Shown here in pieces: positions 29,856-63,886 of a stretch of 64,000 bases of DNA. The DNA is from Astrocystis sublimbata (taxonomy: Eukaryota > Ascomycota > Sordariomycetes > Xylariales > Xylariaceae). Made by a program: the position numbers and the translations under genes. Numbering within the stretch: the stretch's first letter is position 1; every line of letters begins with the position of its first letter. The notes under the pieces are model-generated. The model saw only the letters and a program-made list of their open reading frames with translations, did no database searches and was not told the origin of the DNA. The DNA is taken from the NCBI GenBank assembly GCA_022453515.1, contig JAJNNY010000059.1, positions 62,001-126,000 on the forward strand, read 5' to 3'.

Positions 29856-31560
29856 ATGCTAAGGCAAGTGGATGTTCTGATCGTTGGTGGAGGCCCTACG
29901 GGAATGACGCTAGCTCTTGAGCTGGCCGCTCAAGGGGTCTCCTTCCGCATCGTAGACAAAGCCACGGAGCGATCACCATACAGCCGTGCTCTTGTTGTGC
30001 AACCCAGAACATTGGAACTTCTTAACCGCCACAGTCACACCGAGATCCAGGAACTTGTGGGAGAAGGCAATGTTGCCCCACGAGCCTCTGTTTGTGTTGC
30101 GGCGAAGAAAATAACAGACATCAACTCGAGCGAATTCAAGCTCCCAGGCACTAAGTTCCCGGCTTCAATGACCATCACACAATCAGAGACCGAGACTTGG
30201 CTTGAGAAGGAGCTTGCCAAGCATGATGTTCAAGTTGAGATGGGCATAGAAGCCAAGAACATCACCCAAGATGCTGAAGGCGTTACTGTGACCTTGTCAT
30301 CGAAAGATAAAGGGGACGAAGAACTACGAGTAAAATAGTAAGTTTTCCTTTCTGTTTTCTTCCCCTTCTGTTTCGGAACGATTTGCCTTCGTTAGAATCA
30401 ATATCTTTAGTCACTACATCTGACGTACTTATTTCTGTAGCGTGGTTGGAGCGGATGGAGCACACAGTGCCGTTCGTCATGCTTCAAATCTCACCTTCGA
30501 CGGTGATGCTTACCCTCAAGAATTTCTGTTGGCCGACGCCTATATGGAATCTGAGATGCCTGGTGGCCAGGCTTACATGTGCCTAGGCAACGGAGCGCTT
30601 ATTGTCCTACCGCTGAAGGGAGGGAGAGTTCGTCTTGTTGTTTCTCGTCCTGGTCAAGATACCTCACGTGAGCCCAAGCTGGAAGATATACAAGACTTCG
30701 TGCAGGAGACATTTCCAGGCGGCGGCACTCTGCATGATCCTGACTGGGTCACGCGATTCCGGCTTCATCATCGCGGTGTCAACAACTACCGTGACGGCAG
30801 ACTATTTGTGGCAGGAGATGCGGCCCACATACACTCGCCAGCCGGCGGACAGGGCATGAACACAGGAATACAAGACGCCGTCAATCTGGGATGGAAGTTG
30901 GCCACGGTCCTCCGCGGCGAAAAACCCGACTCCTTCCTTGATACCTACCACAACGAAAGGCATCGCATCGGACAGTATCTCCTCACGAGTACCGACAGAG
31001 CCTTCACATATGTCACCTCGACGAATCCCATCTTCGTATTCTTGCGCAACCTTATCCTTCCATGGGTACTGCCCATAGTGTCGTTGAACAAATCACGCAT
31101 GTTGAAGCAGCTTCAGTTTATATCGCAGCTGCGCATTCGATATCGGCACAGCAACATCGTCGGCACAGGTAGCGGCTTCTACGGCCCCATCAAGGGCGGC
31201 GACCGAGCTCCCGACAATAAAATTAAGAGCCCAGACGGCAAAGAACTCTGGTTCCTTGACCTCCTGACCCCCACCAATCACCATCTTATGCTATTCTCGG
31301 GATCTGGCTCGAACCAAGCTACCGAGGGCGATCTGACTCGTGCCGAAGCAGCTTTCCAGAATGATACCAAGACCGCAGTCAAGGTTCACACGATCTTTAG
31401 CGGACAACATGAGGGACAGGCAGGGTACGTGGATGTGGACGGTGCTCTTCACAAGACGTTTGGTTTCGACAACGCCGGTTACGTTCTTGTTCGGCCTGAT
31501 GGCTACATAGCGAACATTGGTCTGTTAAAAGAGATCGGTGAGGCAACAAAGTGGCTGTAA
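29856..31560 (+). CDS. FAD-dependent aromatic hydroxylase, PheA/TfdB type
   Basis: Flavoprotein monooxygenase of group A, probably hydroxylating a phenolic or related substrate with NAD(P)H and O2. Two exons, 29856-30337 and 30441-31560, give 533 residues; the 103-nt intron rejoins KYVVGADGAHSAVRH. Rossmann motif IVGGGPTGMTLALELA at residues 8-23, the family block RALVVQPRTLELL at about 49-61, the DG motif at 166-167 and the GD motif GDAAHIHSPAGGQGMN at 286-301 are all intact. The C-terminal about 150 residues match the thioredoxin-like phenol-hydroxylase tail in length, with GDRAPD at its start. The ATG has a favourable CCAAAATG context; no signal peptide. Such enzymes occur both in catabolism and in secondary metabolism. 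No partner genes adjoin it. Confidence 0.92.
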
Positions 31561-45128: not shown

Positions 45129-47037
45129 CTTGTCTAGATTGCCAACGATTTCACAGAAAGAGATGGGGGTTCTTTGGCTTTATGAAAAACCATGGTCTCA
45201 GCATACGAAGAGTCGTCGCTCTTTATACTACTCAAAAACTGTATTGGGTGCCTACCTGTATACTGACTCGGAGTAAAGCGAGGGTTAGTGTAACCCAGCA
45301 CAGAGTCCAGTCGCAAATCGTGATCTTGGTCTAGTTTGTGAGAGTCCGTGTCCGTATCTGAGCTGGATCATGTCATTGTGAGGGGGAGAACAGCGTTCAT
45401 AGAATAGCTTGCTCATCTTCTATGAAGTTTAGACATGCCCCGTCTGAATCCCGGCCCGACTGCAGGCAACACCAACCGGTAATTGACGCCATTTCGGGGC
45501 AAGCCCTTTTCGAGGCGATGATCTTCACTATATTCACCTCGTAGAATCACAAGATCGCGTCGGTCTGCAGGTTCTACAGGAATTGAGTGTGACGCCGCTC
45601 AGCGAACCTGCAGACACCCAAACGAGACATGTGACAACTACAATAGTGCGCAAGAGGAATCGCAATACTCAATTTTACAACATCATCGGTATAGTTTTCA
45701 ATCAAGTTAACCACTGCCCCGACAAAGCCATACATTGTCTAGGTCGGACGTTTGGAACTCGATCCATCGCTATCGTTGCGAACACATCGTAGTATCAAGG
45801 AGGCATGCGCTGAAGCTGACATGGAATACGACCATTCTGGCTGTGTTCGCTATTTCTAATGTTACAGGAGTACCTGGTTTTCAGATGACGCCGAAGACTG
45901 TGATACCGTGTTACTTGCTCTGGTTTCACCGTCCGACCGCAGACTTTTGACCCCTGAGACATGAGTGAATATAACGCCGAAGGAGAATACCGAAGTCCGT
46001 TATGTTTTTGAATGTTTGTCACAGTGTTCCATCTAAGCGAGACCGTTCTACAATAAACACCGATTTATCGTTGTATTTCTACATCATGTAACAAGTCCCC
46101 GAGTGTTTGTCGTCACATCAAGTCTGCAGATGGTTGTGTGGGGCTGAATAATCGAGCACATGTGTTTCTTCAGATATTCCAAACCTTCTATTTGCTATAT
46201 TACTTTCGCATTCAAGTTGCCGGATGGCGGGTACTGTGTCTTGACAAATCACCTCATAAGCACAATCGAAAGATGATTATGAAACAGGTGACAATGGTTG
46301 ATGACACCGAGTGGAAGAAGGCAGCCCAAACATAGCATCCCAGAATGAATAGATAACATCTTCGTGTGTGACATAACGGAGCCGTCCTCATGTTTCTGAG
46401 TGTAGGTGCCAGCACTCGAGGAGCCAAGTGCCGAAATATCCGACGAAGGGGTACATCTACAAGAGTTCCATGCGGAAGAGCTCAAGTCTCGACTGGTCAG
46501 ACTCATTATCGATTGTTGTAGTAGCAAACTGATGTAAATCAAAGGCTCGATATAACAGCATCGGATTGCCTGTCTTAAAGGTGGACTAGGGCGGCATTGT
46601 CAGGTTGATGATGTGATGATCTAGTTCGAGACGTAACGAACAGCGCGAATAATTTATACTGCGACGGATTGACTGACTCAGATGGATTCAACAAGTTGCC
46701 TAGTAAGAGTACCGCGTTGGCAGAAATCAAGCAGTAGTATCGTGTACTGCGCTCTCAATCGCCAAGATCAACATCATTACACAGTATGAATATTTCTATT
46801 CAACAGGAGAATTCAATAGTCCGTCACATCATGGAAATACGAAACACGAAGCTGAACGGCATGTATATTCAAAGGAGTTGAACAATCGTGATAAGAGGGA
46901 TAGTGATTCCACCCATTTATTTTCGTCACACTCACTCAAGCTAAATGTATCTATATGACTTCGTCACCGGAAAGCATCATCAATATAGCTACTAGGGCAA
47001 AATTCTATTTAGGTTGCCTGTCGAGAAACCGCAGCTA
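45129..47037. other. Spacer of 1.9 kb at the left border of the terpenoid cluster
   Basis: AT-rich, with no recognised gene. It separates the Ser/Thr-rich gene from the first cluster P450 and is the likely left edge of the cluster. Confidence 0.45.
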
Positions 47038-48793
47038 TCAAGTCTGAACCGACTTTACTTTAACCCTCAAACCTTTCGTGTCTTGCTTTGGTGATGGTAC
47101 GAAGAAATCATGCTGGATTTCGATGTCGGTGATATCGGTGTCATACAGTTCGAATTCAAAGCGACGGAACAAAGTGGCGAGTACTCTGTACAGCTCTACA
47201 TATGCCAAGCTATCACAATGCGCAGTCAGTACACGGTTGTCCAAATAAGCACGTCAAACTTACTTGACACCAATACACATCCGGGGGCCTTTGCCGAAGG
47301 GCACAAAGTAGCGGCTAATGTTCTCGCCTTCGCTCGTCTTAGGGTTGTCTAGCCAGCGCTCAGGGATGAAGGCGCGAGGGTTGTAAAATACGCCGTCGTC
47401 GTTGAGCAAGTCGAGTGTGGTCATCGATACAGGCGTTCCGGCGGGTATCACCCAGTCCTTGTACTTCATGGGCTTATCCCGCGAGATGCGTGGTAGGCGA
47501 ACTGACACGCCTGTTGACAACCGAACTCCTTCTCTAACACATCCAGTAAGATAGGGAAGTCTTTCCAGATGAAGAGAGTCTGGAATCGCGTCAGGGTCCG
47601 GGATGGCCTCGCGGAGCTCAGCCTGCAACTTCTTCAGAGTAGACGGGTTGTTAGCTAGGTGAAAGACTGTCGTGGTTAATGCCCAAGCAACGGTCTCCAG
47701 GCCGGCTCCTATCAATTGCTGCGCTTCAGCAGCTAGGCGACCGAGCGATTTCTCCTGCGGTGGCAGATCGCTGCCGAGCAATTCAGTGAAAATTGTCGGG
47801 TGCTCACGATCGGAGTTATCACCCTTGCCATTTATGATGTTTACAATTTTGGATTTAAGATCCTTTTACTGTTAGTGAAATAGGCCTTTCAGTGGCGTGG
47901 AAGAACACACCTTTTGTAGAATGAACATCTGATGAATGTTAGGTGTCACCCGTTTCATGACCCAAGTTGGGGTTAAACCCAAGACCTGCATCATATTAGA
48001 ATTCATCAAAACGAGATCGATGTTCGGGATCATTATACTACTTACAATGAACATGCTGGGGAACTGGAGCCCGAGGTGAGCGAACTTGCGCACGGCCTCG
48101 TAAGCGTTGTGAAAGTTGTCTTTGAAGTCGGATGAGTCCAACTGGTCCCAGCAGAACCCGAAACAATAAGAGGCGATAACATCGCCCGAGAATGCATTGA
48201 AAGCGTTATTCAAGGCAAGGATGTTACTCTTGTCTGCATACGATGCTAAGCGCTCGCTCAATAGTTCTACCTTCTGCTTAATGACAGGCTCGAACTTGGT
48301 GATGCTTCGCTTGGAGAACATCGGGTTGAGCGGAGCTCTGCGAATAGCATGAATGTCACTCCTCACGGTCGAAGACGTTGTTGTGTTCGCGCCGAATCTC
48401 CCCGACATCCATTCATATCGCTCATACTCCTTGTGTCCCGTGTAGAGCTCATCCCAGTAGTTGCTGTCTTCCACATGCAACTCAAAGGGGTTTATACGGA
48501 CAATGGGACCTTTCGATATTTAGAAATTTGGGGCTGTAACCGGCTTTGATGTACCACATACCGTATTTCTTGTGCATCTTTTGGATCTGAAATGTGAACT
48601 GTCCTCGCATCACCACATCGTGATAAAATTCGTACCATTTTGTCGCAGCCGCGAGTTTGGGACCCGGGAACATTGACAGTGGGCTGAAGTATAAGCGATA
48701 CACCACGAGGCCGATGAGATAGGCTATCCATAATGTGACACCCGCCGCCCATATGGCGACGGTCGGCCGCTCAAGCAGTGATGAATAATCCAT
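47038..48793 (-). CDS. Cytochrome P450 (cluster P450-1), TRI4-like group
   Basis: Membrane-anchored monooxygenase, probably oxidising the cluster terpene. Five exons on the minus strand: 48793-48562, 48509-48046, 47985-47911, 47862-47264 and 47209-47038; 513 residues, usual for microsomal P450s. The N-terminal anchor (about 12-35) is followed by the proline hinge FSPLSMFPGPK. I-helix GAGLETVAW, ExxR EGVR, FIPERW and heme loop FVPFGKGPRMCIG (C453) are all intact. It resembles trichodiene-oxygenase-like fungal enzymes (KWYEFYHDVVMRGQFT; GPIVRINPFELHV). It shares splice positions and LAAEA/PQEK blocks with P450-3, so the two are paralogues. Its promoter is shared with the divergent P450-2, 342 bp away. 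Confidence 0.93.
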
Positions 48794-49134
48794 ATTGACA
48801 ACAGAGAATGATTAACATAAGAGCCAGAGCAAGCGATGCAGCCATCGACAGCCCTCTGTTAATGAAGCCATGAGCGCCAGACAGCCCAAAGGCTCAACTA
48901 AAAACTAGTGGATATAGTGGAGATGGGGATGGCCAGGGTATTCGGAGCTCGACACTGCTCAATAAGGAAAACCCGGAATCGTTGCTCGCATATCGCATTA
49001 GCAGAAACGCCATTCGTCAACATGTTGCAAACGGATTCCATAGCGCATCTTTCAAAACATCCTTCAAGAAGAGCCCTGCGCATTTGGTGCAGTTCTGATG
49101 AAGATTGTTGCATCTACGCTTTAGAAGCTTCATC
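48794..49134. promoter_or_regulatory. Divergent promoter between P450-1 and P450-2
   Basis: The two start codons face away from each other with 341 bp between them, which must serve both genes. I see no strong TATA motif and none of the GCCTAA hexamers present in the other divergent promoter of the cluster. Confidence 0.55.
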
Positions 49135-50853
49135 ATGGGTCTCTTGTCAGTATGGCCAGAGGGCTTAGTGCCTTCGGTCCCCCAGCTTGCCATTGGGGCG
49201 GCTCTCTACATGGTAAGTTTGGCCTCATTATGATTTCAGAGATGGAAACTCTGCAACTAACTATGAGAAGGCTTATTGGATAGCATCAGCTATCTACAAT
49301 AGATTTTTCAGCCAGCTTCGCAAGATACCTGGCCCATTTTTGAACTCAGTCTCCTGGATTCCGTGGTACAAGTACTGGTTCTCAGGGTACATGCACCGCC
49401 ATGTCACGAGACTCCACGAAGAGTACGGCCCAGTTGTGAGATTAGGGCCTACTGAGATCTCATTCATAGACGGCGCTGCCTGGAAAGACATTTACAGCCT
49501 GAAAAGATGTCGCCAGATTGAGCGCGACCCAAAGTCATTCCCAGCGCTCACGCCCAATGGCGCTAGGTTCGACCTGTTGACGTATAGTCCGGAAGGTCAC
49601 GCGAAATATCGCAAGATCTTAAATCCGTCGTTCTCAGAGAAATCGACGAAGGAATACGAACCGACGATCCAGGAAAACACGGACAACTTCATCAAAAAGC
49701 TGTCGACTAAGCTTGAGCAGAAAAATGTCAAGATCAACCTCACTCAATGGCTGCAATGGCTGACCTTTGACATGGTCGCCGATGTTGTGTTTGGTACTCC
49801 ATTCAGTTGCGTCTCAGAGGAGAAAAGCCACCCTTGCCTAGCACTTTCTATGGACCTCGTCTCGGCTTCGTCTTTCATTGTTTTCGTCAGCTGGTGGACT
49901 GGGCTCAAAAACTTCCTGGTGAAGTTGTCTGGCGTTGAGAACTTGTTCATCAACATGGTTCGCACCAAGTGCGAGACGAATCTGAGCTCAAAATCCACCA
50001 AAGCAAGCATCTTCTCCAACCTCACAAAAGCCGGTGACCCGTTGAACCAGGCCGAGATCGACGGCAACATGACCGCTTTGGTCATCGCTGGAAGCGAGAC
50101 GACCGGATTCATCTTGACCGCCACTAGCTTTTACCTCGCGACGAACCCGGAGTGCTTCCGGAAAGCAGCCGAGGAAGTGAGGTCGGCGTTTTCCACTGCA
50201 GAGGAAATCACCGATGACGAGATCAGAAAATTGCCTTACCTCCGAGCCGCGACAGACGAGGCCTTGAGGATGACGTAAGTAGCCCCAAAACTCGTTGCTT
50301 TCTTGCGCATGCCTTTCTTTAGTTTCGTGATATTTAAGGATGGTATTTGAAAAGACAGTACTAACTAACAGCGCTCTAGTCCCGCGGAACCAAACGGCTT
50401 GGCAAGAAAGGTGGTGATCGATGGCATTGACATCGCAAACCAATACATCCCGAAAGAGGTAAGTCATCATAGAGCGTTATCACGAAATTATCGTGAAGCT
50501 AACTTGTGCAGACTGCGATCTACGTTTCCCAGTACGCTCAAAACAGGCAATCGTCTAATTTCCACCTTGCCGATGAGTATCGCCCTGAGCGATGGTTGAA
50601 CGACCCTGAGTTTCAAAACGATAAATTGGATCTAGTTCAACCGTTCATCATGGGCGTCAATGTCTGCATTGGAAGAGGTTTAGCTTGGATGGAGATGAGG
50701 ATCATTCTGGCGAAGATGCTATGGCATTTCGACTGGACTGTAGATGTCAAGGACAGAGAGCCGTTCGAGCAGGCGAAGGCGTGGCATGTGTGGACGAAGA
50801 ACCCGATTCAGATCAACTTGCTGCCAAGAGGCGCTCTCGATGCTAAAGCTTGA
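49135..50853 (+). CDS. Cytochrome P450 (cluster P450-2)
   Basis: Four exons, 49135-49212, 49271-50274, 50380-50458 and 50512-50853, give 500 residues. The short first exon supplies the hydrophobic N-terminus (VPSVPQLAIGAALYM) and joins to AYWIASAIYNRFFSQL and the hinge KIPGP; without it the protein would lack an anchor. I-helix IAGSETTGF, ExxR EALR and YRPERW are intact. The heme loop is FIMGVNVCIG (C439): the Arg that normally sits two residues before Cys is Asn437. The block PEGHAKYRKILNPSFSEKS is typical of fungal secondary-metabolism P450s. It is divergent from P450-1 and shares the phase-0 intron before the TAIY/TPVS segment with P450-3. Role inferred: oxidation of the terpene skeleton. 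Confidence 0.92.
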
Positions 50854-51561
50854 GCGTATCTTCGGAGAGTAGTACATCGCTAGTAACGAAAGGCATAGAC
50901 CAAACTGTCACATGCGTCCAACTGTCGAGACTGTGACGGCAAATAGCGTGATGCAACGTGACAATACATTATTGTTAATCTGACATTTTGATTGGGCAAA
51001 TACAACGCAGGGGTTGCGTCTGAAAATTTCCTACTCCAAAGCACTAAGTTCTGACAATGGCGGAGTCTTATTAAGCGTCTAAGTCAACAAAATACCGATA
51101 GTGGTCGATCTACATCGTCGCATACCTATTTGAGTGTTAACTACAGAATCCACCCAACCGACATGCTGACCTAAATATAAGCTCGGTAAGTACCTGACTG
51201 GACTAATGCTAGTTGCATTGGACCCTGATCTAGTGAATCCTTGCTGACAGACCGCCTATAATTTGGTTTGAAAATTTAGGCGCTTTGATCGTGCAAGATG
51301 CCGCCGTGACATCATTCCACCCCACGTTCTGCTTGTTCACTCACCCTGTCGTCTGTCGAGCTTGTCGGGACGGTCAGCACTTAACTGAAGCTACGCAGAA
51401 GAAGCGTGGACGTAATGGTAAACAAACCTGTCGTCATGACGGTGATTTGATGTTCACTAATATGATATTTTTGGACATTCATATCACTTCGAGTTTCACG
51501 AGGAGAAAGAGAGAAATGTGTGCTCATGAACCAAGACTGCGTTTATATTAGCGTTGCTAGA
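50854..51561. other. Spacer between convergent P450-2 and the NTF2-like gene
   Basis: AT-rich 3' flanks. An 88-codon ORF at 51285-51551 has no motif. Confidence 0.5.
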
Positions 51562-52172
51562 TTACTTGGCCATACCAGGTAGCTTCTGGATGAACGGCAG
51601 GAAAGGTACCCTGTCCTTGTAAATGTACATCTTTTCTATTTTGCCCGCATCAGGACCTTCTGTGACAATATCGAAACGACCAATCATGGGGATGGTGACC
51701 GAGGGTGCATCGGGAAGCGCGTTGAAGATTGCGGTCGAGGTTCCTGAGCTGTAGATAGTGCCGTTGGTAACGTCTTTGGGAAATGATTAGTTCATACTCT
51801 GCAAGACCGATGAAGGTGCTTGAGGAGAATCTCACCGTTCTTGAATCTAGCATGCGATGTCTTCATTGATGGCATGATTTGCATCTGCTTCTTCAGGTTC
51901 TGTAATGCCAAATTAGTCCCGTAAAGTGATACCAGCCATTGTCGGACTAAGCATACCGAGGTGAATGTTTCTAGACCTTCATCCTTCTGCAGACCACCCT
52001 GATAATCAAGGCTTGCTGCAAACACTTCGGGGAATCGGTCGAAATCGTAGGAATCCAGGATTTCGAAGACCTATGAGCATCAGAACCAGCTGACGAGAGT
52101 GACAAACATCATTTAGCTCACCTTGGCCAGAAAGGCCTCTGGGTCCTGTAGCGCGGCGATGTTGGCGGCCAT
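51562..52172 (-). CDS. NTF2/SnoaL-like small protein of the cluster
   Basis: Predicted cone-shaped alpha+beta-barrel protein of 146 residues. Four exons on the minus strand: 52172-52122, 52070-51957, 51899-51836 and 51773-51562; introns of 51, 57 and 62 nt, all with clean GT-AG sites. The opening (PEAFLAKVFEILDSYDFDRF) has the helical start typical of SnoaL-like domains. The later DVTNGTIYSSGTSTAIFNAL and GRFDIVTEGPDAGKIEKMYI fit the strand-rich half with the usual final 'interest in K-I-x-x-M/I-Y-I-Y' strand. Such proteins act as isomerases or cyclases in fungal meroterpenoid and polyketide clusters (the Trt14 group is an example). It is transcribed away from P450-3 across a 455-bp shared promoter. 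Catalytic residues cannot be assigned. Confidence 0.75.
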
Positions 52173-52627
52173 GTTTGGATTTGGGATACTTTAGGCTTTT
52201 GGTTTCAAAATATCGTGACTTTGCTTCTCACAACTATTATCCAAATATTAATCTTAATTCATCACGTCTACTAGCGATATAAGTAGAATCAATCGCTTAT
52301 TGATGTTGAGGGCGACGTGGAAATTCGGGTCTGCCTAATAGGGAGCGCTCGGGGCGGTTTAGGCGGCCTATTCAGCGCCCTGTTTGACAATTTACAGAGG
52401 CTCGGACCTGCCTAAGTAAGACATGTTAGAGCCCCAAATTCGCGCCTAACTGTGAAATCTACAGCACATATCTACCGTGCATAGAATGCGAATCTCGTCT
52501 TATTAGGAAATGAAATAGATCATCGACTTATTCAATTTTACAATTTCCATGTATTGATCCAATTTCGTGCACGCTAGACGCCGTCTTCACACAACACGCA
52601 TCGTGGTGAACGAAACCGTCAAGCGCC
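52173..52627. promoter_or_regulatory. Divergent promoter between the NTF2-like gene and P450-3
   Basis: This 455-bp segment separates two outward-facing starts. It holds five exact copies of GCCTAA or its complement TTAGGC: 52191-52196 (-), 52333-52338 (+), 52359-52364 (-), 52410-52415 (+) and 52444-52449 (+). Two of these overlap or adjoin a GC-rich block (52345-52380) with the near-palindrome TAGGCGGCCTA at 52360-52370. The surroundings are AT-rich. A shared operator for a pathway regulator is an inference. Confidence 0.5.
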
Positions 52628-54548
52628 ATGGGAGCCTTTCAGGACGGGCTTGATGCCTATCAACAAGCCAGTTACGGGCAGCTCGTGGGAGCTTCAGCCG
52701 TTCTCCTGGTGGTCTACAGCATCGCTTTAGTTACCTACCGCCTCTTTTTCCACCCTCTCGCCAAATTCCCTGGGCCCAAGATCGTAGCAGCATCTACGTG
52801 GTATGAGACCTATGTAGATCTCTTCAAACATGATTTCCCAGAGCGTTTAGTGCGGATGCACCAAAAATACGGTTAGTAGTCCAACACAAGGGCCCCATGA
52901 AGCTGCAGCTCACGAAGTTTTACATAGGTTCTATCGTGCGGGTCTCCCCCAATGAGATTCACATCAGTGATCCTGATTTCATGACCACGGTGTTTGCCAC
53001 TGCTGCGAAGCACCGGACTGATATCATTCCCCCTCGGGGATTGGGTATGGATGGTATGTGGACGACCTGACTAATATGTTTGACCATCCGTGACAACTTT
53101 CGTTAATACGGCATCTGTTCAGATTCCATTGGATCAACGCCAGGCCACGAGGCGCACGCAGTTAGAAGGAAGCCTTTGGACAAGTACCTCTCACGCCAAA
53201 ATGTGGTCAGACTTCAGTCCATCATTCATGATGAGATCAGACTCCTGGACCGAAAGATGATAGAGACCAAGGATACAGGTGTGCCAGTCCGACTAGACTG
53301 TGCTTTCACAGCTTTCACCGGAGATATTGTCGGACACATTGCTTGCGGCGAAAGCCCACAGCTGCTGGAGGGCAAAGACTTCACACCCGAATGGTACACC
53401 ATGATCCGAGGAGCCGCAAAGATCATCCCCCTACTCAGACACTTCCCACAAGTCGGCCTTATCACTCAATACGTACCGGCATGGTTGGTGCAGACGTTAA
53501 TACCCAACACCACTGGTTTCCGGATCCTGCAGCTTGTAAGTGCACCTCTCTGGCCTTGATCTTTGCTGTGGGACTCTTTTACTGACCGGATCAGCTCGGC
53601 GAGCAACGTGTGAACCGGATAAGCAAGGAGGTCGACATGGAGAAGAAAGGTCAAGTCGAGGTTGAGGAGAATGGATCCATGTTCCATCACCTTTTGCGTA
53701 GCGACATCCCTTCGCAAGAGAAACAACCTGCCCGCCTGGCTGCTGAAGCTGTCTCCTTCCTGGGCGCTGGAACTTATCCCACCGCTGCCACACTGATCTT
53801 AACTGCATACTACATCCTTGCCAAGCCAGAGATCGAGGAACGCCTACGCAAGGAGCTCCAAGGGGTCATGGCCAACTTTGATGATGAAGTACCGAACTGG
53901 GTGGATGTAGAGCAAGTCGAATATCTAGGTGCCTGCATCAAGGAGGGACTTCGGTAAGCACTCGTGCATCCCAATGGAATTGACGACGCTGATGACAACG
54001 ACAGAATTCTGCGCCTATTCCGCCGGAAGGGTCGCATTTCCATCGACAAGGATCTTCAGTACAAGGAGTGGACGATCCCTCAAAACGTAAGGCTAACCCC
54101 ACTTAACTACCATAGACTTCATATGCTAATACAGATGTTCACAGACACCCGTCAGCATGTCGCCTTTCTCTATGCACATAGATCCAGAGGTTTTCCCGGA
54201 CCCTTTCACCTTCAACCCGGATAGGTGGTTGGGCAAGAACTACGATTCCAAGATGGACCGCAACCTGAACCCCTTCCTCCAGGGCTCGCGAATTTGCATC
54301 GGCATGCAGTAAGTGCCCCCGACTCCCATTCGGTGCTTGTTAGGCAAAGGCATCTAACCGAATCTTCTTATAGCGTCGCTTGGGCTCAGATGTACCTCAT
54401 CCTGGCCACATTATTCCGGCCCAACAAGTCATACCGTCTGCGCCTTGGTGCTTGCGACGAGTCAGATGTGTTCCCTACGATCGACAATGAGTTCGGAGTT
54501 GCGAAGTACGATTCCAGAGGGCTCGTCGGTGTAGTCAAATCCGAGTAA
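52628..54548 (+). CDS. Cytochrome P450 (cluster P450-3), altered I-helix
   Basis: Seven exons: 52628-52871, 52928-53053, 53123-53535, 53595-53953, 54005-54086, 54145-54308 and 54374-54548; 520 residues. N-terminal anchor at about 18-38, hinge [12 protein letters not shown], then [13 protein letters not shown]. ExxR EGLR, FNPDRW and heme loop [10 protein letters not shown] (C459) are intact. The I-helix reads GAGTYPTAA at 318-326: the acid of the usual A-G-x-D/E-T-T/S motif is Tyr322 and the following Thr is Pro323. That suggests either atypical oxygen activation or a non-monooxygenase role. It is a paralogue of P450-1, sharing three intron positions, and belongs to the TRI4-like group. Divergent from the NTF2-like gene. 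Confidence 0.92.
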
Positions 54549-55240
54549 ATTGTCTAGGTGCTTTGTTAGCCAATAGCATCACAGCTGAAGCTGAGACTAA
54601 ACCCCAAAACAGTAATTTCCTAACTGAGGGGCTGGGGTCTCTACCAGAGCAACAAGACCTAGAAACATAGAATATAGACAAATGTAAAATGTAAATATCC
54701 TCACAATGCATTTCTTATCACCTGTTACGAGCATGATATCTTCTTGCGGGAAAAATTGTACTAAGAAGATAATGTGCACCATTCGCCGACTTAGGTCTTA
54801 GAAGTTGTTGACCACAGTTGCGCTACGCTAGGGAGCGCGAAGCCGTCACCGAGGAATACCGCCCCTCTATGTAATGTTTTCGGAAGAGGGGGGAGGGGTC
54901 GTCTTGGAAGATACCTATTGAGGGTTGAAATTGCACAACATCAAAACCAGGCAGAGTAAGCCTAAACTCTAAGATGTTGCAAGATCGAAGCACTCGAACT
55001 CTCATGATCTTATATTATAGTGTTGGCAAGCATTTCACCAAATGCGACCGTTAGTGAAGTTGTACGTCGTCATTAGTTTACCAATTTGTTTGTCAACGAC
55101 AAGGGTCACATCGCAAGGTGTGCAGTAGTGGAATATCGTTGGAATATAGCTTTGCATCGCTCTAAACAGAAGTTTTATAGCCAAAAGACCCGACAATAAT
55201 TGCCACGCAATATCTTACAAGACCTTCACTGGCACTTTAG
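54549..55240. other. Spacer between convergent P450-3 and the glycosyltransferase
   Basis: 3' flanking sequence of both genes. No feature recognised. Confidence 0.5.
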
Positions 55241-56953
55241 CTACTCAAAACACAGGTCCGTGATAATCTTCGCAGCTTTAGTTCTCCCACCACTGTTCCG
55301 ACACACCTCACCCAGTTCCGCCGCCCTCTTACTCATCGCATCCGCTTTTTGGTCCCCCTTAACACGCCCAACGGTTCTCAGTAGAGCATCGCCAAACTCC
55401 TGGCCATCAACCATAAGCGGCGCTTGGTAGTTCTCATTGTCAACGACGCAGTTTCGGCCGGCATCACGATTGCCGTACACGCCTATGCCGAGGTGCTCAA
55501 TGCGCGTGGCGTAGTCAAACGTATCATACCACATCGAAAGGATCACTTGCGGAATGCCAGCCCTGAGAAAAGTCAGCTTGATCTCGCAAAATTGAACCTA
55601 GAGGTAGAAACCAAGGGTTTCACTCACCATGTCGCCTCGAAATATGAGTTGGCTCCGCCGTGATGAATGGCACACACCACATGGCCACTTCGCAAAATCG
55701 CTACCGGGTCGGGTTTGAGCCAGCTCTCGATCCTAACCCTCCCGCTTTCTAACTCATCGCCGAGAATAGTGTTTAGGGTCTCCTTGCCATCCCCTTCTGA
55801 GCTCTCCTCTGGCTTTAGTTTCCATAGCACCTGAATATCCGGTCGTGCATCCAGAAGGACGCGCAAACCGACGGCTTGCTCTCGTACTGTTGCCGCATAG
55901 GCTCTGTTAAACATGACAGTTAGATATTTGGATCGTAACAGGGCTTTGACGCATTCATCTAGCGTTTTGACTTTCACTCACTCGAAGTGTGTCCCTAGAG
56001 CCATGAGAACTGTTGGTCTCTTCTCGAGCCAAGCTAGCAGATCGGGGTCGTTTTCCTCGATGGGTGTCGAGGGCAACATGATGGGCCCGCAATTATGTAC
56101 ATTCGAAGGCCATTCCAAAGGAAGATCGATCTCGGGAAGTGAGGGACAGATATGTGGCACATCTTTCACCCATGGTGTGAAACTTCCCAGTGGCTCGTGG
56201 AGGCCCTGGGCGCGTCTGGCGTCATTTATCTCTTTGACTTTGGGATCGTAGGCAGCGTTCTCTATCGTCCTTTTCGTGTAATAGTTCTCTAGCATGTAGC
56301 TCCAAGGCAATGGGTACGGGAAACCGGTCGCGAAGCTTTGGAGATGAAATATTAGCATAATTGCATTAAGCCCTGGACTGATAGGAATCTTACGCTGGAT
56401 ACTTCCAGTACGCTGCAAGCCAGGGTTGTTCGGATAATAACCCTTCTGCTAGCGTACAGGGACTCAAGACGGCGTATTTTCGCTTCAGTTTCCGCGCCAT
56501 GTCATGTATCGGGACCAGGTGAGGGTCAACGACAACAAGAGCAGGGTCCAGCTCTTTCGTCAAATCGGCAGCCCAATTCAGCAGCGCCAAATGAGCCTCC
56601 GGACCCCAGGCAGAGAGGAACCTGACAGCTAACATGGAGATTCTCTCCGCCCCGCGCGAGCCTGGCGGGTGCGGTATATCGGCCTTCTTTCTGTTCCCAT
56701 TTTTCTTGGCGAACTCGATGAATCCGGGGAAGGACGCGAGATTGTGGTATGTGATGGGCGGTATCGACTCGGACGGGTTTTCGTCTTGGGCTTGTTGCGA
56801 AAGCTTCTCGAGACGCGGCTGCAACGGCGCCCAAGAGGCAATGTGAATATTGTGTTTGTTTTGGCGCAGGAGCTCGTAGGCTGTTGACAGAACAACATTC
56901 GCTTGGCCGAAGTCCGAGTTGGTGAAGAAAATGAGGGTCTTGCGTGCCACCAT
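55241..56953 (-). CDS. UDP-glycosyltransferase, GT1 family
   Basis: Cytosolic GT-B enzyme transferring a sugar from a nucleotide donor to a small lipophilic acceptor. Four exons on the minus strand, 56953-56394, 56335-55982, 55903-55628 and 55562-55241 (introns 58, 78 and 65 nt), give 503 residues. An in-frame ATG ten codons upstream exists, but I prefer 56953, where MVARKTLIFFTNSDFGQANV gives the usual N-terminal Rossmann strand. VLMALGTHFE is the hinge strand before the donor domain. The donor signature is HHGGANSYFEATWAGIPQVI followed by DTFDYATRIEHLGIG, a divergent form of the UGT motif that keeps H-x-G-G-x-N-S and E. There is no signal peptide or C-terminal anchor. Its place between P450s suggests glycosylation of the oxidised terpene. 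Confidence 0.88.
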
Positions 56954-59387
56954 TGTTGCTATTGTCTTTCTTTTTTTACACAAACTGTCTCGTTGTTACT
57001 AGTAGAACGCGAGAGTACCTGCAAGATTATGCGCAGAGTCGATCTCTTCAGCTGGTGATAATACGTATTAGTCCAGGCAGAGAATGGCACAATCTCGTCA
57101 CAACAATGTTCGGCGATAACATATTACTATGCTTGGTTAAGCTTCATTTTCGTCGGTAGCGCGTCACTCGCTCGCTATGTTAGATTGTCGGGCTTCAGCC
57201 GACCAATATTAGAACTACTCTACTTGGTAATAATGCCTATCCCCTTGGATCCTTGAAGTTCAGGACTCTGCCTCAAAAATGTCTACTTGGCGATACCCAC
57301 ATCCCGTTTCGCGATTGCCTGTTCCAGCAAGACCCGGGTATCTAACTCGCTAGGCAGATGATAGATCCTACCCAAGACCCTGAAAACGTTCCTGTATTTA
57401 GCTTGGATGACGTCGCATCGGTACTACGTCTTGACGCTATCAGATTGAAATGGGAGACCTTTGATTGGGTGGCCGATATTGTCGGCTTGCTGACACAACG
57501 AAAAGAGGCAATATCACATGCTTGCGATGCTTTTGGCAATCGACGACACTCAGAAGGGGATTATTAATATTACCATATTCGACAGTACTTGGTACCTGAA
57601 CACTAAATTACGACTCCGGTCAACGCCCGCATATGCACTGCTTTTTTAGCCCCGAAGGAGAGAATAACAACTTACCTACGGAGACAAGGCTGCGAGATAG
57701 CAATTACCTGCCCGTAACTACTGTCAATCACATCTGACCAGTGATGTCGTACATGATATTGATTACCTTAGTTGTGTCGACCAGTGAGATTATGTCTTAT
57801 CAAGTTGACCATTGAATTGCCCAGAGATTGCTCGTCATTTACTTGAACACTGAGCTACAACTAAAACTAGAGAGTGGCTATTACAATTTGTTTATAACCT
57901 CGATGCAGGGTCTGTGTCTGTACTTGTAAGCTCATGTATCAGAATGCTGTCAAGCCTATTCGATGATTGTAACTATGATGTACCTAGGTAGTATATGACT
58001 GCACAGTGGCCGAGAACCAACAACCATTCGAAGTTGGAGCACAGGAAACCGACAATCTTGTGAACACTAGGGTATGGGCAGCAACATGTCCACTCAGTCT
58101 GTCAATCCAGGATGCATTCAGTGACAATCATTAGATGTGGGGTGTACAAACTATATTCATTCCTTGTTGGTCGCATGGTTTCCACGTGGATCGTGAGTTT
58201 GGAGCCACAGGAGTATATCTGTATTACATCGAACTAGTAGAGGGCAGAAAACGTATAGCTGGTACCCACGATGTGTTGGCAGCCGTGCGGGCGTATTTTG
58301 TATGTCTTGTTACTCGACTTCGACGGAATTTATTTACACCTACTTCATTGGCTTCCATGATGAGCGAACACCTATTACAAACCAGGACCAATGAATTCCA
58401 GGGGGTGAGAAATAGCCCATTTTGAAAAATCACGATTGAGTCTTTTTCGAAATTGGTACCGAGTCTGTATTCCAACTTCAACGAGAAGTTTCGAGTTGAT
58501 CAATGGGTCCTCATTGTGTACGTTGTGCTCTCGCAGGGGCCAAGAACCACCCTCAATCGAAATTGGGCTAACTCTGCCTGATCTCATCATAGCGGTGACT
58601 AAATCAGAGCGGTTTGAGAGACCCATTGATCATAGCAAAAAGCATATCATGGGCGATGTTAATCTAAGTATCGGTGCCAAGGATAAAGGCGTGAGTACCT
58701 AGGTATGTATGAAGGTTTCAACATTTTGCGATAACTTCCTTGGGTTTGCCTACTTCTGTCTACTCAACGTGGGTTCTGCCCATGGTACAACTGGGCAATA
58801 CAGCCCTACTTCTAGTATGATCATACGTACCAGGTACCCAGGCAATACTGGTTGACTCCAGGGCTTTTGTCCATCGAAGCAGGAAAGTTGAGGCATTCCC
58901 AGGACTTTTATGATGAATATTGGCTTGTTGCATTTAACTGTTACATGCATTCAATTTATGTATTTATCCTGACTGACCGCCTTTCCGGGATCCCATTGCC
59001 CCAGCCCTTGGGGTACCTACCTCATGATGGGCAATTCGATTTCGCGATTCAATTGAGCATTCGCTGGGTTTCTCTCGCTCGATTTTTTTACACGCTGCTC
59101 TGAGATAGTACGGTAACACATATAAAACGGCTTCTGCATGTTGAAGTTGATAGCCATCTTCAAGATGAGTTGGATAATACAAATCGCGTTTACAGCGGGC
59201 CCGGTACTGCTAAAATGGGCACTTCCGGGTACCTTTTTACCGCTAAATTCTGGCGACGAATAGCGACTAATGAAGATGTACCGACGTAATCTGGATTTGA
59301 AATAAAGTAAATTCAGCTGAATCCTGAAGTCGACATTCTCAATCTGCAACTTTTCATCTTTATTCTGTGCCAATTTGCATAGCAAAG
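56954..59387. other. Spacer of 2.4 kb inside the terpenoid cluster
   Basis: No recognised gene. ORFs at 57358-57567 (69 codons) and 58135-58425 (96 codons) carry no motif. The right end is the promoter of P450-4. Confidence 0.45.
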
Positions 59388-61215
59388 ATGGAGGCTCTAC
59401 ACCCTGTCCAACACAATGGTACCTACGACAAGCTAAATGCGGTCGTAGGTGCCGATGTCTCCACGTTCTTGTCCACCTTCAGTGCTTGGAAAGGACTTGT
59501 TTTATTACTCTGCCTTTCTTGGGGCGCATCTACAATAGCGACGAGTCGGAGGGTGAGGGTTGAAGGTGCCCCAGTTCACGGTTACTGGGGTTGGTTTGAG
59601 CCTACATGGTTCTTCAAGCTCAGATACGCTCGAGATGCCCACAAATGGATTGAGAGCGGCTACCACAAGGTATGTCTTTGAACAAACCACGAGGTCGAAA
59701 ACAGACAATTAACAAATGAATTAGTTCAAGGATTCACCTTTCGTCCTTCGCCGCCTGGATCACGACATTACGATTCTTCCTACCAAATACGTCGACGAGC
59801 TCCGATCGATTCCCAATGCGAAGCTGAGCCGTGGAAGAGCAAACTTCCTGGTTAGTACTATTGCCGAAATATATTTGCTTCGCTCTCTTACATGTCCATA
59901 TAGGAATGGGGTGACCAATGGGCAATGCACTCGCTCTGGTCGCACTCTGAGGTATCCATTAAAGCTATTTCTGAGAACCGCAATGGTCAGATGGGAAAGT
60001 ACCTGGAGGCTATTCGAAAGGAGTTGGATTACGCTTATGAGATTGAGATGCCTAAAGGCGACGGTACGTTCTAAAAGCATTGCGAATATCGATACAGGTG
60101 CTAATTGTTATAGATTGGGAAAAGGTCGATATATCCCACGTTGTCAGCCAGATCCTCGTACGATGCATTGGAAAAATGATTGTTGGTAACCCGGCATGCC
60201 GTAGCGAAAAATGGTTGAAGCTTGGCTATACCGAGGATTTCGTTGCCGCATCGCTCATCATGCGCTTCCTGCCGACCTGGACACACCCCCTGATCACGAA
60301 CATAATTCCCCAAAGAAAACGACTTGTGAACGGCGTGCAGACAGTGCGTGAGATTATTGCACCAATGATCGCTCGACACGAAGAATTCAACAAGCAGAGG
60401 GCTCAAGGAATTGAGGTTGATGAAGAGGACTCTATGTTGAACTGGGTTCTCGACAACGCAGACGAAGAAGCCTTGAAGAACATCGCGCAGATTGTTCTGG
60501 TCATGTTTGTTCCAGCTGCTCATACCACCTCTATGGGTATCGCCAACGTCTTATTTGATCTCTGCAACCGGGACCACCCCGAGTGGGTTCAAGATTTGCG
60601 TGAGGAGATATCTGAGGTGACCGACGAGTTTGGCCCGATTGGCGAGAAAGTACCAGTGCGCGATTGGGCACTGAAGCTCGACAAATTGGACAGCTTTTTC
60701 CAGGAGAGCCAACGTCTCAGTCAACCCATCTCGAGTAAGTTTCTGTCGAAGTGGACAACATAACACATTTGTAATATGTACTGACTATTTCAGTTACCCC
60801 CAACCGTTATGCCTACCAGGACGTCACATTCAAGGACGGTCTGACCGTTCCCAAGGGAGCCCTCATTGGGTTCGTGGCTGTTCACAACCAGATTGACCCA
60901 GAAATTGCACCAAACCCTGAGGTATTCGACCCGATGCGAAGCTACCGCAGGCGAATGGTGAACGCCGAGGAGAGACAGAAGTACATGGCCGGGCAGCCCT
61001 CCAAGGAGAACTTTGCCTTTGGCTACGGCGCTCAAGCATGCCCAGGAAGGAACTACGCGGTTGCTGTGCTGAAAATGGTGTTGTCAAGAATCATTATGGA
61101 CTACGAGTTCAAGTTCCCTGAAGGGCAGACGGGGCCTACCAAGTACCATCTGATGGAGTTCATTATCCCTGACCCTAGGGCGAGACTCATGATGCGAAAG
61201 AGGAAAACGGCTTAA
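59388..61215 (+). CDS. Cytochrome P450 (cluster P450-4), kaurene-oxidase-like
   Basis: Five exons, 59388-59669, 59725-59850, 59904-60063, 60114-60734 and 60794-61215, give 536 residues. Membrane anchor at about 33-50 (WKGLVLLLCLSWGAST). This differs from the other three P450s: the I-helix is VPAAHTTSMG, with His in place of the acid, as in fungal ent-kaurene-oxidase-like and related terpenoid P450s. ExxR is ESQR. The heme loop is FAFGYGAQACPGRN (C479), with the CPG form. Other family blocks are KYVDELRSIPNAKLSRG, GNPACRSEKW and RKRLVNGVQ. The start is the ATG at 59388 (AAAGATGG). It is co-oriented with the terpene synthase, 985 bp upstream of it, and is a likely multi-step oxidase of the terpene. 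Confidence 0.93.
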
Positions 61216-62200
61216 ACACATAGACACAGCAGTTATCAATGAACATACAAGTGGTTTCTACATCGCAAAACAATAGATATTAGTTAACAATACCCATGCT
61301 ATTACATGACGTACCTACTGGAGAACACCTCGTAGCTCTTGTGGCGCAGGGCTCTTGAGCCTGGCAGCCTCACCCAAAAAGGGTTGGTGGGAGATGAAGG
61401 GTGGAAATGATGGGGCCCGAATAGTTGTGCACATTGCATCATGTAGATTTACATGCAAATTGACTGACCAAGGTATCTATCTACCTCGTGTACCATACTG
61501 ATCGACACGACAGTCGTATCAGTTAAGCTTGGTGCTTGGCAGCATTTGGAGACGGGTAGATCACGTAGGCTTCGAGCTCGCAACTATCGATATAACTTCA
61601 ATGACCTCATACACAGAATCCTACTGCAAGTAGACACCACCTTATCACCCTCACATCGCATTCGCCGGGGCCTTGACGCTCGGTCCAGGCATAACGTTAG
61701 CTCAGGGTATAAGACGCAGAGGCTCGCATATGGATGTCGATAAGAACTAGTTCCCTAGTGACCCAAGCAATTACAATTTTGACAGAGTCGGATGCATTTT
61801 GTCGCTCTTCCGGTTGCTGCTCTGTTCCTGTTTGTACATACTCTATATAGAAATTCCGAATGTTTATGTAATATGCGGGATCCATAACTATCGCAGAGAT
61901 CAACACTCTGGTACCGGACCAGGAACCGGACCTTTCCTCTTCCAGCCAATGACATCCCTTCAATTCTAGTATTTACGCTAATAACATGTTCACTAAATGG
62001 GAAGTTGCCGAGTCCACCCCGTGCATGTAAAGGTGCGTGTAAGTCAATACCTGTTCACGTCATTGGATCGAGTAGTAGTTAGCTCTTGAAAACACGCAGT
62101 TCCAATAATCGTGTTTAAATCTCAAAAGCGTGATTGATACTTTCTGATTGTTCATTTTACTTTACCATTCATTACTCGTTGTCGATATACGTTATACAAA
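61216..62200. other. Spacer with the terpene synthase promoter
   Basis: No gene recognised. A TA-rich stretch lies just before the synthase ATG (62180-62200). Confidence 0.45.
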
Positions 62201-63886
62201 ATGCCGTCAGCCAACGAGATCCACGAGACAGCCGTTCTCACCAACGGCGGTGCGACCAACGGCATCAAGAAAGCAAACGGTACCAATGGCACCAATGGCA
62301 CCAACGGAGCCAACGGCAAGACTTCGCGAACTCTTCACATTCCAGACCTCTTTGGCGGTATCCTGTCGGGCGACCCGGTTGAGAACCCGTTAGAGCCTAC
62401 AATTGGCTCTGCATCTGAGGAATGGACCAAGGCGTACGTTTAGCTGGCTAGAGATCGAAGTAAATACTGACATCGATGTAGTCTCACAAAGATGGACCCC
62501 AAAACGGCGAAGATATTGTCGAAAGCCAACTTCGCTTATCTGATCAGTTTGGCCGCACCAGAAGGTAGCCTACCCAAATCACTCCGTGAACGAAACATAA
62601 ATTAACGACAATTCAGCGAATGAATTTGCATTCAGAATGGCGGTCGACTGGTGTATATGGGTGAGTTTCAAATCACAATTTCAATTCGTTTCGAGTTTGC
62701 TAACGTATTATTCAGGCATTTGTTTTTGACGACCAGTACGATGAGGGCGAGATGAAAGACAAGACCATCGAGTCCGCTGAGGAGATGATATGGACATTAT
62801 CTCTCATGGATGACTCATACCCTCCCGTTGACCCCGAGAAGCACGCACTCCGTTTCATGTTCCAGAGCACCTGGCGACGATTCCAAGAAGTAAGCATTCT
62901 CCTCAGCCCGCAATTTTGGCACCCAAACATAGCTAACCGCCGAATTACAGAGAAACCCAGCACCAGGTAATTTGCTACCGAACCCCACATTCAACGCATT
63001 ACGAGACTCGAGGTCAGCGTGTCAGGAATTGAACGACGGCTAACTTATTCATCAATAAAGATCTACAACAGAGATGGAAGGAGACGCATCGTAGATGTCT
63101 GTACGCTATCCTGAAGCAGGTTGTAAGTCACCCCGAGCGACGGCTCTATAATGACCACGACTTTCACGGGCGACAACTGACTCAATTTCTCATAGTGGCT
63201 GGCCCAATCTCAGACTGGTCTCGACGTTCCCATTCCAGAATACATGAAGACTCGGAGAGAATCGATAGGCTCCTACTGCCTGTTTGTCGTGGTTGAGTGG
63301 GCGCACGGCATAAAGCTCACACAAGACATTATGGACCACCCCTCCATAGCGACTTGCGAGCGTGCTGCGGCTGATCTGACATGGCTGTAAGGCACTAGAC
63401 GGTCCCAAAATCTCGCCAATCGGATGCTGACAATTAAATTCCAGCGTGAACGACGTTCTGTCATACAAGAAGGATTTGGTAAGACGAAACCCACGAAAAA
63501 ATTGGAGCCCAAGCTAATCAATTTAACTTTTCAGGCTTTTGGCGTAGAGCACAACCTCATCTGCTTGCTCATGCGACAGGGCTGCTCTGAGCAAGAAGCT
63601 ATGGACAAGACTGGTGAAGTAATGGAACAGTGCCAGAAGGACTGGGACGATGCGGTAGCAAACCTACCTTCTTGGGGTGAAGAGAAGGACAAGGAGGTGC
63701 AGAGGTACCTCGGAGCCTGCCGCGACGTCGCAAGAGCTAACCTTTGGTGGAGGTAAGTTGATCCGTGTTCGCTCTGAGTAGAAACCACCACTAACACAAT
63801 CTCACAGTTTCAAGAGTGGTCGATACCTGAACGCCGAGGAGGCGGCCCAGGCGAGGACAAACAAGATTATGACTTTGACGAATTAG
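62201..63886 (+). CDS. Class I sesquiterpene synthase
   Basis: Ionises a prenyl diphosphate, most likely farnesyl diphosphate, and cyclises it; cytosolic, Mg2+-dependent. Ten exons: 62201-62433, 62482-62564, 62617-62660, 62716-62889, 62951-62966, 63061-63122, 63196-63386, 63445-63478, 63535-63752 and 63808-63886; 377 residues. One exon is only 16 nt. Aspartate motif DDQYD at 125-129, NSE-type motif NDVLSYKKD at 270-278 (final Glu replaced by Asp), and C-terminal SFKSGRY with the R357-Y358 pair. The order and spacing match ascomycete single-domain synthases of the presilphiperfolanol/pentalenene-like clade, as I recall them. The N-terminus carries an Asn-Gly-Thr repeat (about 25-38). No prenyltransferase domain is fused. 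Product not predictable from sequence. Confidence 0.93.
62277..62318 (+). repeat. In-frame Asn-Gly-Thr codon repeat in the terpene synthase
   Basis: A 9-bp unit of the type AATGGCACC is repeated about four times with small changes, encoding NGT NGT NGT NGA. Such slippage-prone repeats vary in length among strains. It lies upstream of the catalytic fold. Confidence 0.75.

What the first reader, a model, noticed from the sequence alone, without database searches (positions are those of the whole stretch)
47038..63886. Candidate sesquiterpenoid glycoside biosynthetic cluster
One terpene synthase, four P450s of at least two groups, an NTF2-like small enzyme and a GT1 glycosyltransferase lie within 17 kb with no unrelated gene between them. 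I do not recognise this gene set as a characterised cluster. Terpene synthase plus glycosyltransferase suggests a glycosylated sesquiterpenoid, uncommon in ascomycetes. The order of reactions is inferred.
Basis: partly seen in the sequence, partly recalled or inferred. Interest (0 to 1): 0.85.

Follow-up and report, generated by a model that had tools for sequence, protein, structure and literature searches.

The report
Sordarin-type antifungal diterpene gene cluster
The seven genes are real and belong together, but they form a copy of the already described pathway for sordarin-type antifungal diterpene glycosides, with its unusual Diels-Alder enzyme, in the fungus Astrocystis sublimbata, rather than a new sesquiterpenoid pathway.

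Summary
The gene set is real and sits at the stated coordinates, but the reading "sesquiterpenoid glycoside, uncharacterised" is very probably wrong. It is a compact sordarin-type (sdn) diterpene glycoside cluster in Astrocystis sublimbata: two of my spliced proteins equal its deposited proteins over full length, from a contig of the same length. Four of the seven genes were tied to sdn genes by sequence. The small "NTF2-like" protein is 52% identical (69/132) to SdnG, the norbornene-forming Diels-Alderase. The synthase is 66% identical to a protein named cycloaraneosene synthase sdnA, one P450 is 69% identical to Sordaria araneosa SdnE, and the glycosyltransferase is 63% identical to named SdnJ. 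The other three P450s are assigned to SdnF, SdnH and SdnB by elimination and order only. Sun et al. [quoted passage not shown] Here no SdnD-like methyltransferase was found nearby, and no GDP-mannose dehydratase passed its cut-off, in searches of limited sensitivity. That hints at a non-O-methylated sugar. New member of a known kind; low interest.

The parts
47038..48793 (-). P450 'CYP_A', SdnE orthologue (sordaricin C-18 hydroxylase by homology); exons 48562-48793, 48046-48509, 47911-47985, 47264-47862, 47038-47209
   Evidence: model; P450; identical to P0024 of Astrocystis sublimbata; 341/497 (68.6%) to SdnE of Sordaria araneosa P0039
49135..50853 (+). P450 'CYP_B'; SdnF (aldehyde to carboxylate) inferred from position between E and G, not matched by sequence; 4 exons
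   Evidence: model; P450; assignment inferred
51562..52172 (-). SdnG-type norbornene-forming Diels-Alderase, 146 aa; 4 exons
   Evidence: model; PDB chain 8yhg_A SdnG, E 1.6e-37; 69/132 identical; the only place in this genome that matches it
52628..54548 (+). P450 'CYP_C'; SdnH (desaturase) inferred from position between G and J, not matched by sequence; 7 exons
   Evidence: model; P450; ExxR, I-helix and heme regions align with 12 relatives; assignment inferred
55241..56953 (-). GT1 glycosyltransferase, SdnJ orthologue; 4 exons
   Evidence: model; identical to P0144; 315/499 (63.1%) to P0155 and 314/499 to P0156, both named Glycosyltransferase sdnJ
59388..61215 (+). P450 'CYP_D'; SdnB (diol formation and C-C cleavage) inferred from its place beside the synthase, not matched by sequence; 5 exons
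   Evidence: model; P450; assignment inferred
62201..63886 (+). class I terpene synthase, SdnA orthologue (cycloaraneosene synthase); motifs DDQYDE and NDVLSYKKD; 10 exons
   Evidence: model; Terpene_syn_C_2; 226/345 (65.5%) to P0015 named Cycloaraneosene synthase sdnA; 260/315 aligned residues (82.5%; 67%, where gaps count) to the Xylaria hypoxylon protein P0010

Best explanation
This is a compact sordarin-type cluster. By homology, the SdnA-type synthase cyclises GGPP, supplied by enzymes encoded elsewhere, to the 5-8-5 hydrocarbon cycloaraneosene. The four P450s make the 8,9-diol, desaturate the ring to a cyclopentadiene, cleave the diol, oxidise one aldehyde to a carboxylate and hydroxylate C-18. 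The SdnG-type protein speeds the intramolecular Diels-Alder reaction that gives the norbornene core of sordaricin. The SdnJ-type glycosyltransferase then adds a deoxysugar. Shown here: gene structures, family membership, and close sequence relationship of four genes to A, E, G and J. Taken from the literature on sdn: the chemistry of each step. Inferred: which P450 is B, F and H, the sugar, the lack of O-methylation, and any role of the neighbouring Zn2Cys6 regulator.
For: SdnG match E 1.6e-37 in PDB sequences, 69/132 identical; Sun et al. report that their BLAST found no SdnG homologue outside sdn-like clusters. Synthase 65.5% to a named sdnA and close to the X. hypoxylon protein; P450 68.6% to S. 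araneosa SdnE and 82.8% to the R. necatrix protein; glycosyltransferase 63% to two named SdnJ. These two species carry the published compact cluster with A, four P450s, G, J and D. Co-location elsewhere, judged only by equal contig length: 7 of 23 synthase rows (6 species) share a contig length with an SdnE-type row and 5 of 23 with an SdnJ-type row; all three coincide in X. palmicola, X. acuta and Naviculisporaceae sp. PSN 640 (rows). Gene order E-?-G-?-J-?-A fits the lettering E F G H J B A, if letters follow gene order.
Against: No SdnD-like methyltransferase was found in or beside the cluster, although the published compact clusters have one. CYP_B, CYP_C and CYP_D were not matched to SdnF, SdnH and SdnB by sequence; the best P450 rows retrieved were about 25-27% identical to CYP_B, 22-26% to CYP_D and at most 46% to CYP_C. 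The closest solved synthase is the sesquiterpene enzyme BOT2. The sdnA name on P0015 is presumably an automatic label, and no row named as S. araneosa SdnA appeared. The tree has no BOT2 row, is rooted for drawing only, and its fork joining the window protein to the named sdnA is open, so it is consistent but not decisive. No GGPP synthase hit on this contig, as in the published compact clusters. No metabolite data.
Confidence: 0.93

Rival explanations
1. A sesquiterpenoid glycoside cluster: the synthase cyclises FPP, for instance to a presilphiperfolane, and P450s and the glycosyltransferase decorate it.
For: Best PDB match of the synthase is presilphiperfolan-8-beta-ol synthase, E 3.3e-73; two of 23 homologues carry that name (P0016, P0022); no GGPP synthase hit on the contig.
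Against: 65.5% to a named sdnA against 44.6% to P0022, a long outlying row with the presilphiperfolanol name; P0016, which also bears that name, falls in a well supported clade with the named sdnA. Companion genes resemble SdnE, SdnG and SdnJ.
Confidence: 0.04
2. A brasilane-type (bra) sesquiterpene glycoside cluster: terpene cyclase, P450 and N-acetylglucosamine transferase.
For: bra clusters occur in X. hypoxylon and Hypoxylaceae and make sesquiterpene glycosides (PMC8403587 passages).
Against: Terpene cyclase 6 (7w5f) scores only 40.5 bits against 250.1 for BOT2; that 7w5f is the brasilane-forming TaTC6 named is from recall. The core of bra is one cyclase, one P450 and one glycosyltransferase, without an SdnG. 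BraA and BraB sequences were not compared directly.
Confidence: 0.01
3. A sub-case of the best explanation, not exclusive of it: an sdn-type cluster whose end product differs from sordarin B, for example sordaricin with another or a non-methylated sugar.
For: SdnD not found near; gmd not over its cut-off while an RmlB-like dehydratase frame exists elsewhere; SdnG only 52% identical to the SdnG of the PDB.
Against: All core sordaricin genes appear to be present; absence of SdnD and of gmd are negative results of limited sensitivity, and the broad family PF16363 has 18 matches in the genome, most of them not examined.
Confidence: 0.35

Closest known systems
Compact sordarin B cluster of Rosellinia necatrix and Xylaria hypoxylon (Sun et al. 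2022, PMC9095873)
   Same: One SdnA-type synthase, four P450s, SdnG, SdnJ, and no GGPP synthase gene among the cluster genes. Close relatives from both species: P0030 of R. necatrix to the SdnE-type P450 (82.8%) and P0010 of X. hypoxylon to the synthase (82.5% of aligned residues).
   Different: The published set has eight genes including methyltransferase SdnD; only seven were found here. The figure with gene order was not available to me.
sdn (hypoxysordarin) cluster of Sordaria araneosa, LC079035.1
   Same: Relationship to SdnE and SdnG shown by sequence, to SdnA and SdnJ by named relatives; order consistent with its lettering if letters follow order.
   Different: sdn has twenty genes, among them a GGPP synthase, a GDP-mannose dehydratase, a FAD oxygenase and a polyketide synthase; none of these is among the seven genes here.
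tdn cluster of Talaromyces adpressus (PMC12006653)
   Same: Same core A, B, E, F, G, H, J.
   Different: Its table lists sixteen genes including C, D, I, N and O.
bra (brasilane glycoside) cluster
   Same: Terpene synthase, P450 and glycosyltransferase in Xylariales.
   Different: Three core genes with one P450; different synthase type.

Membership tests
sdn-type sordarin cluster | SdnA-type cycloaraneosene synthase | tested here: met
   226/345 identical to P0015 named sdnA; 260/315 aligned residues to X. hypoxylon P0010. Tree of 22 of the 23 homologues plus the window protein is consistent but not decisive: fork to the named sdnA open, no BOT2 row. By sequence only; product not assayed.
sdn-type sordarin cluster | SdnG Diels-Alderase | tested here: met
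   E 1.6e-37 to SdnG chains, 69/132 identical; activity not assayed
sdn-type sordarin cluster | SdnE P450 | tested here: met
   341/497 identical to P0039, Sordaria araneosa SdnE
sdn-type sordarin cluster | SdnB, SdnF and SdnH P450s | tested here: inconclusive
   Exactly three further P450s are present; reference sequences were not among the 120 of 853 rows listed, nor in the PDB rows shown, so identity rests on count and order
sdn-type sordarin cluster | SdnJ glycosyltransferase | tested here: met
   315/499 and 314/499 identical to two proteins named SdnJ
compact (sordarin B) version | SdnD sugar O-methyltransferase in the cluster | tested here: inconclusive
   No methyltransferase in the frames scanned from gap and flanks and no listed hit of five methyltransferase families within C145:62001-126000 (searches scored only 28 of 100 and 50 of 116 candidates); SdnD's own sequence and family were not available
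compact (sordarin B) version | No GGPP synthase in the cluster | tested here: met
   4 polyprenyl synthase hits in the genome, none on contig C145
sdn-type sordarin cluster | Production of sordaricin or a glycoside of it | not testable with these tools
   needs chemistry
sesquiterpenoid glycoside cluster | Synthase acts on FPP | not testable with these tools
   sequence evidence points to the SdnA type
bra cluster | BraA/TaTC6-type synthase | tested here: not met
   40.5 bits to Terpene cyclase 6 against 250.1 to BOT2; that this entry is TaTC6 is from recall

The most novel reading that the evidence does not exclude
The A. sublimbata cluster makes a sordaricin glycoside whose sugar is not the 4-O-methylated one of sordarin and sordarin B: SdnD is missing, and the donor is not a GDP-6-deoxyaltrose made through a GDP-mannose dehydratase. 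SdnJ would then have changed donor. This would be a naturally simplified sordarin.
Probability: 0.3. Interest if true: 0.35.

Novelty: new member of a known kind. Interest (0 to 1): 0.2.

Why it matters
It replaces a claim of a new sesquiterpenoid pathway with a testable prediction: Astrocystis sublimbata should be able to make a sordarin-type inhibitor of fungal elongation factor 2. It adds an SdnG homologue at 52% identity for studying this Diels-Alderase class, and a possible natural case of the pathway without sugar O-methylation. It also shows a labelling trap: a protein that groups with the named sdnA (P0016) is labelled after the sesquiterpene enzyme BOT2.

Tried and rejected
Rejected: sesquiterpenoid product (synthase and companion genes are sdn-like); bra-type cluster; relic cluster (all seven frames intact; two equal deposited proteins).

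Led nowhere: PDB searches with CYP_B, CYP_C and CYP_D showed only P450s of other pathways among the best 60 rows each. One search with an alignment of all four P450s had 853 hits but listed 120; of these 108 are closest to CYP_A and 12 to CYP_C (at most 46% identical), so SdnB, SdnF and SdnH references were not obtained. The elongation factor family search gave 2 matches and says nothing about self-resistance. The methyltransferase hit at C145:22440-22838, about 86 kb left of the cluster, lies in a 273-aa frame that I read as sterol-methyltransferase-like from recall; another weak one lies at C145:156424-156750, about 30 kb right. Neither was compared with SdnD, whose sequence I did not have. 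The broad sugar-dehydratase family PF16363 had 18 matches; I looked at two of the places. The frames at 29718-31560 that look like a FAD monooxygenase were not compared with SdnN. Window 1-45179 was read as open frames and in the whole-genome family searches, not scanned frame by frame with Pfam.

Literature: searches were made, each over the open-licence PMC library, and some listed only part of their hits. No listed title is about this cluster in Astrocystis; the two papers naming A. sublimbata were seen in the search listing only. Read: PMC9095873 parts 1-4 of 7 and two passages; PMC12006653 parts 1-2 of 6; passages of PMC8403587, PMC8000789, PMC10971283 and PMC8951520. Kudo et al. 2016 was not read.
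Full report
Observation. The window lies at C145:62001-126000 of a 42.6 Mb assembly. Splicing by hand, with intron ends checked in the script, gave seven intact genes spanning exactly 47038-63886: P450 (-), P450 (+), small protein (-), P450 (+), glycosyltransferase (-), P450 (+), terpene synthase (+). Pfam confirmed four P450s, Terpene_syn_C_2 and a glycosyltransferase domain (EryCIII-like_C; UDPGT just at cut-off); the 146-aa protein had no Pfam family. Two of the seven models are identical over full length to deposited proteins of Astrocystis sublimbata from a contig of 220,280 bases, the length of C145.

The key clue. The small protein matches SdnG, the sordarin Diels-Alderase, at E 1.6e-37 in the PDB sequences, with 69 of 132 aligned residues identical. 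Sun et al. [quoted passage not shown] The window has one synthase, four P450s, an SdnG homologue and a glycosyltransferase.

Gene by gene. The synthase has 23 homologues at E <= 0.001 among the candidates scored. The one named 'Cycloaraneosene synthase sdnA', of Naviculisporaceae sp. PSN 640, is identical at 226 of 345 aligned positions; the X. hypoxylon protein at 260 of 315 (one search gives 67% for the latter because gaps count there). In a tree of the window protein and 22 of the 23 homologues (P0023 left out) the window protein sits with Xylaria proteins. The row named presilphiperfolan-8-beta-ol synthase from FL1019 is a long outlying branch, while the Apiospora protein with that same name groups with the named sdnA. 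The root is for drawing only, 10 of 20 inner branches are well supported, 7 are open, the fork between the window's group and the named sdnA's group is open, and no BOT2 sequence was in the tree: it is consistent with the SdnA reading but does not prove it. P450 CYP_A is 341/497 identical to S. araneosa SdnE and 424/512 to the R. necatrix protein. The glycosyltransferase is 315/499 and 314/499 identical to two proteins named SdnJ.

The other three P450s. A joint search did not list SdnB, SdnF or SdnH (120 of 853 hits listed), and PDB searches showed only P450s of other pathways. With E, G, J and A fixed, the order in the window is E, CYP_B, G, CYP_C, J, CYP_D, A. This fits the letters E F G H (I) J and B A if letters follow gene order in sdn, which I assume and did not see. 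CYP_B = SdnF, CYP_C = SdnH and CYP_D = SdnB are therefore inferences. The CYP_C gene model is supported by agreement with 12 relatives around the ExxR and heme regions.

Co-location elsewhere. Each row stands for a cluster of sequences and only 120 rows were listed per P450 and glycosyltransferase search, so these are probably lower bounds; equal length does not prove the same contig.

What is missing. No GGPP synthase hit lies on the contig (4 polyprenyl synthase hits, all elsewhere), as in the compact clusters, so GGPP would come from enzymes encoded elsewhere. No SdnD-like methyltransferase was found: the 17 frames from the 2.4 kb gap, the 12 from the left flank 45180-47037 and 14 of 18 from the right flank (L009 1401-8500) hit none; the left flank gave only a weak FGGY_N match, E 0.087, below its cut-off. 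Five methyltransferase families searched in the whole genome listed no match within C145:62001-126000 (in some only 28 of 100 and 50 of 116 candidates were scored). The nearest listed were about 86 kb left and 30 kb right. GDP-mannose 4,6-dehydratase (TIGR01472) had one match of 54.1 bits against a cut-off of 415; of the 14 control genomes, all rang and 6 passed the cut-off. That match lies in a frame closest to dTDP-glucose 4,6-dehydratase, itself below that model's cut-off (280 against 365.1 bits). The broad family PF16363 has 18 matches in the genome, most not examined. Genes broken by introns can be missed by such searches. Sun et al. predict rhamnose as the sugar for compact clusters, which would fit.

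Surroundings. Immediately right of the window, at the equivalent of 64006-65540 on the minus strand, is a 473-aa Zn2Cys6 protein, a plausible but untested cluster regulator. The SdnG-type protein matches only its own place in the genome. A second SdnA/BOT2-like synthase lies at C1:352748-353600, 37-38% identical to the named sdnA.

Mechanism. By homology with the reconstituted pathway: GGPP to cycloaraneosene (SdnA type); 8,9-diol (SdnB); cyclopentadiene (SdnH); diol cleavage (SdnB); aldehyde to carboxylate (SdnF); Diels-Alder closure (SdnG type); C-18 hydroxylation (SdnE type) to sordaricin; glycosylation (SdnJ type). Shown here is only the presence and relationship of the proteins.

Known context. 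Sordarins are said to be produced mainly by Xylariales (PMC8000789 passage), and Xylaria yields sordaricin derivatives (PMC10971283 passage). A sordarin cluster in a xylariaceous fungus is thus expected. Sesquiterpene glycosides are also already known from the order, as brasilanes (PMC8403587 passage).

Verdict. An ordinary but now better named cluster: new host for a known pathway, with one open point (sugar and its methylation).

Noticed in passing
window equivalent 64006-65540 (L009 6-1540, minus): Zn2Cys6 regulator of 473 aa directly beyond the synthase and just outside the window; may be the cluster's regulator.
   Followed up: partly
49135-50853 and 59388-61215: Heme-binding motifs deviate: FIMGVNVCIG (N where R is usual) in CYP_B and FGYGAQACPG (Q where R or H is usual) in CYP_D (the usual residues are recalled).
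   Followed up: no
52628-54548: I-helix of CYP_C reads GAGTYPT without the usual acid-threonine pair; the 12 relatives aligned also lack the acid, so it looks like a family trait (the usual motif is recalled).
   Followed up: partly
P0016 and P0022 (homologues of the synthase): Two homologues of the synthase carry the name presilphiperfolan-8-beta-ol synthase; P0016 groups with the named sdnA and shares a contig length with an SdnJ-type row (P0160), so its name is probably wrong.
   Followed up: partly
G000:C1:352748-353600: A second terpene synthase related to SdnA/BOT2, 37-38% identical to the named sdnA, elsewhere in the genome.
   Followed up: no
G000:C67:356786-357937: dTDP-glucose 4,6-dehydratase-like frame (below that model's cut-off), a possible source of an activated rhamnose-type sugar.
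   Followed up: partly
29718-31560: Frames that read like a FAD-dependent aromatic monooxygenase (by eye), about 15 kb left of the cluster; not compared with SdnN.
   Followed up: no
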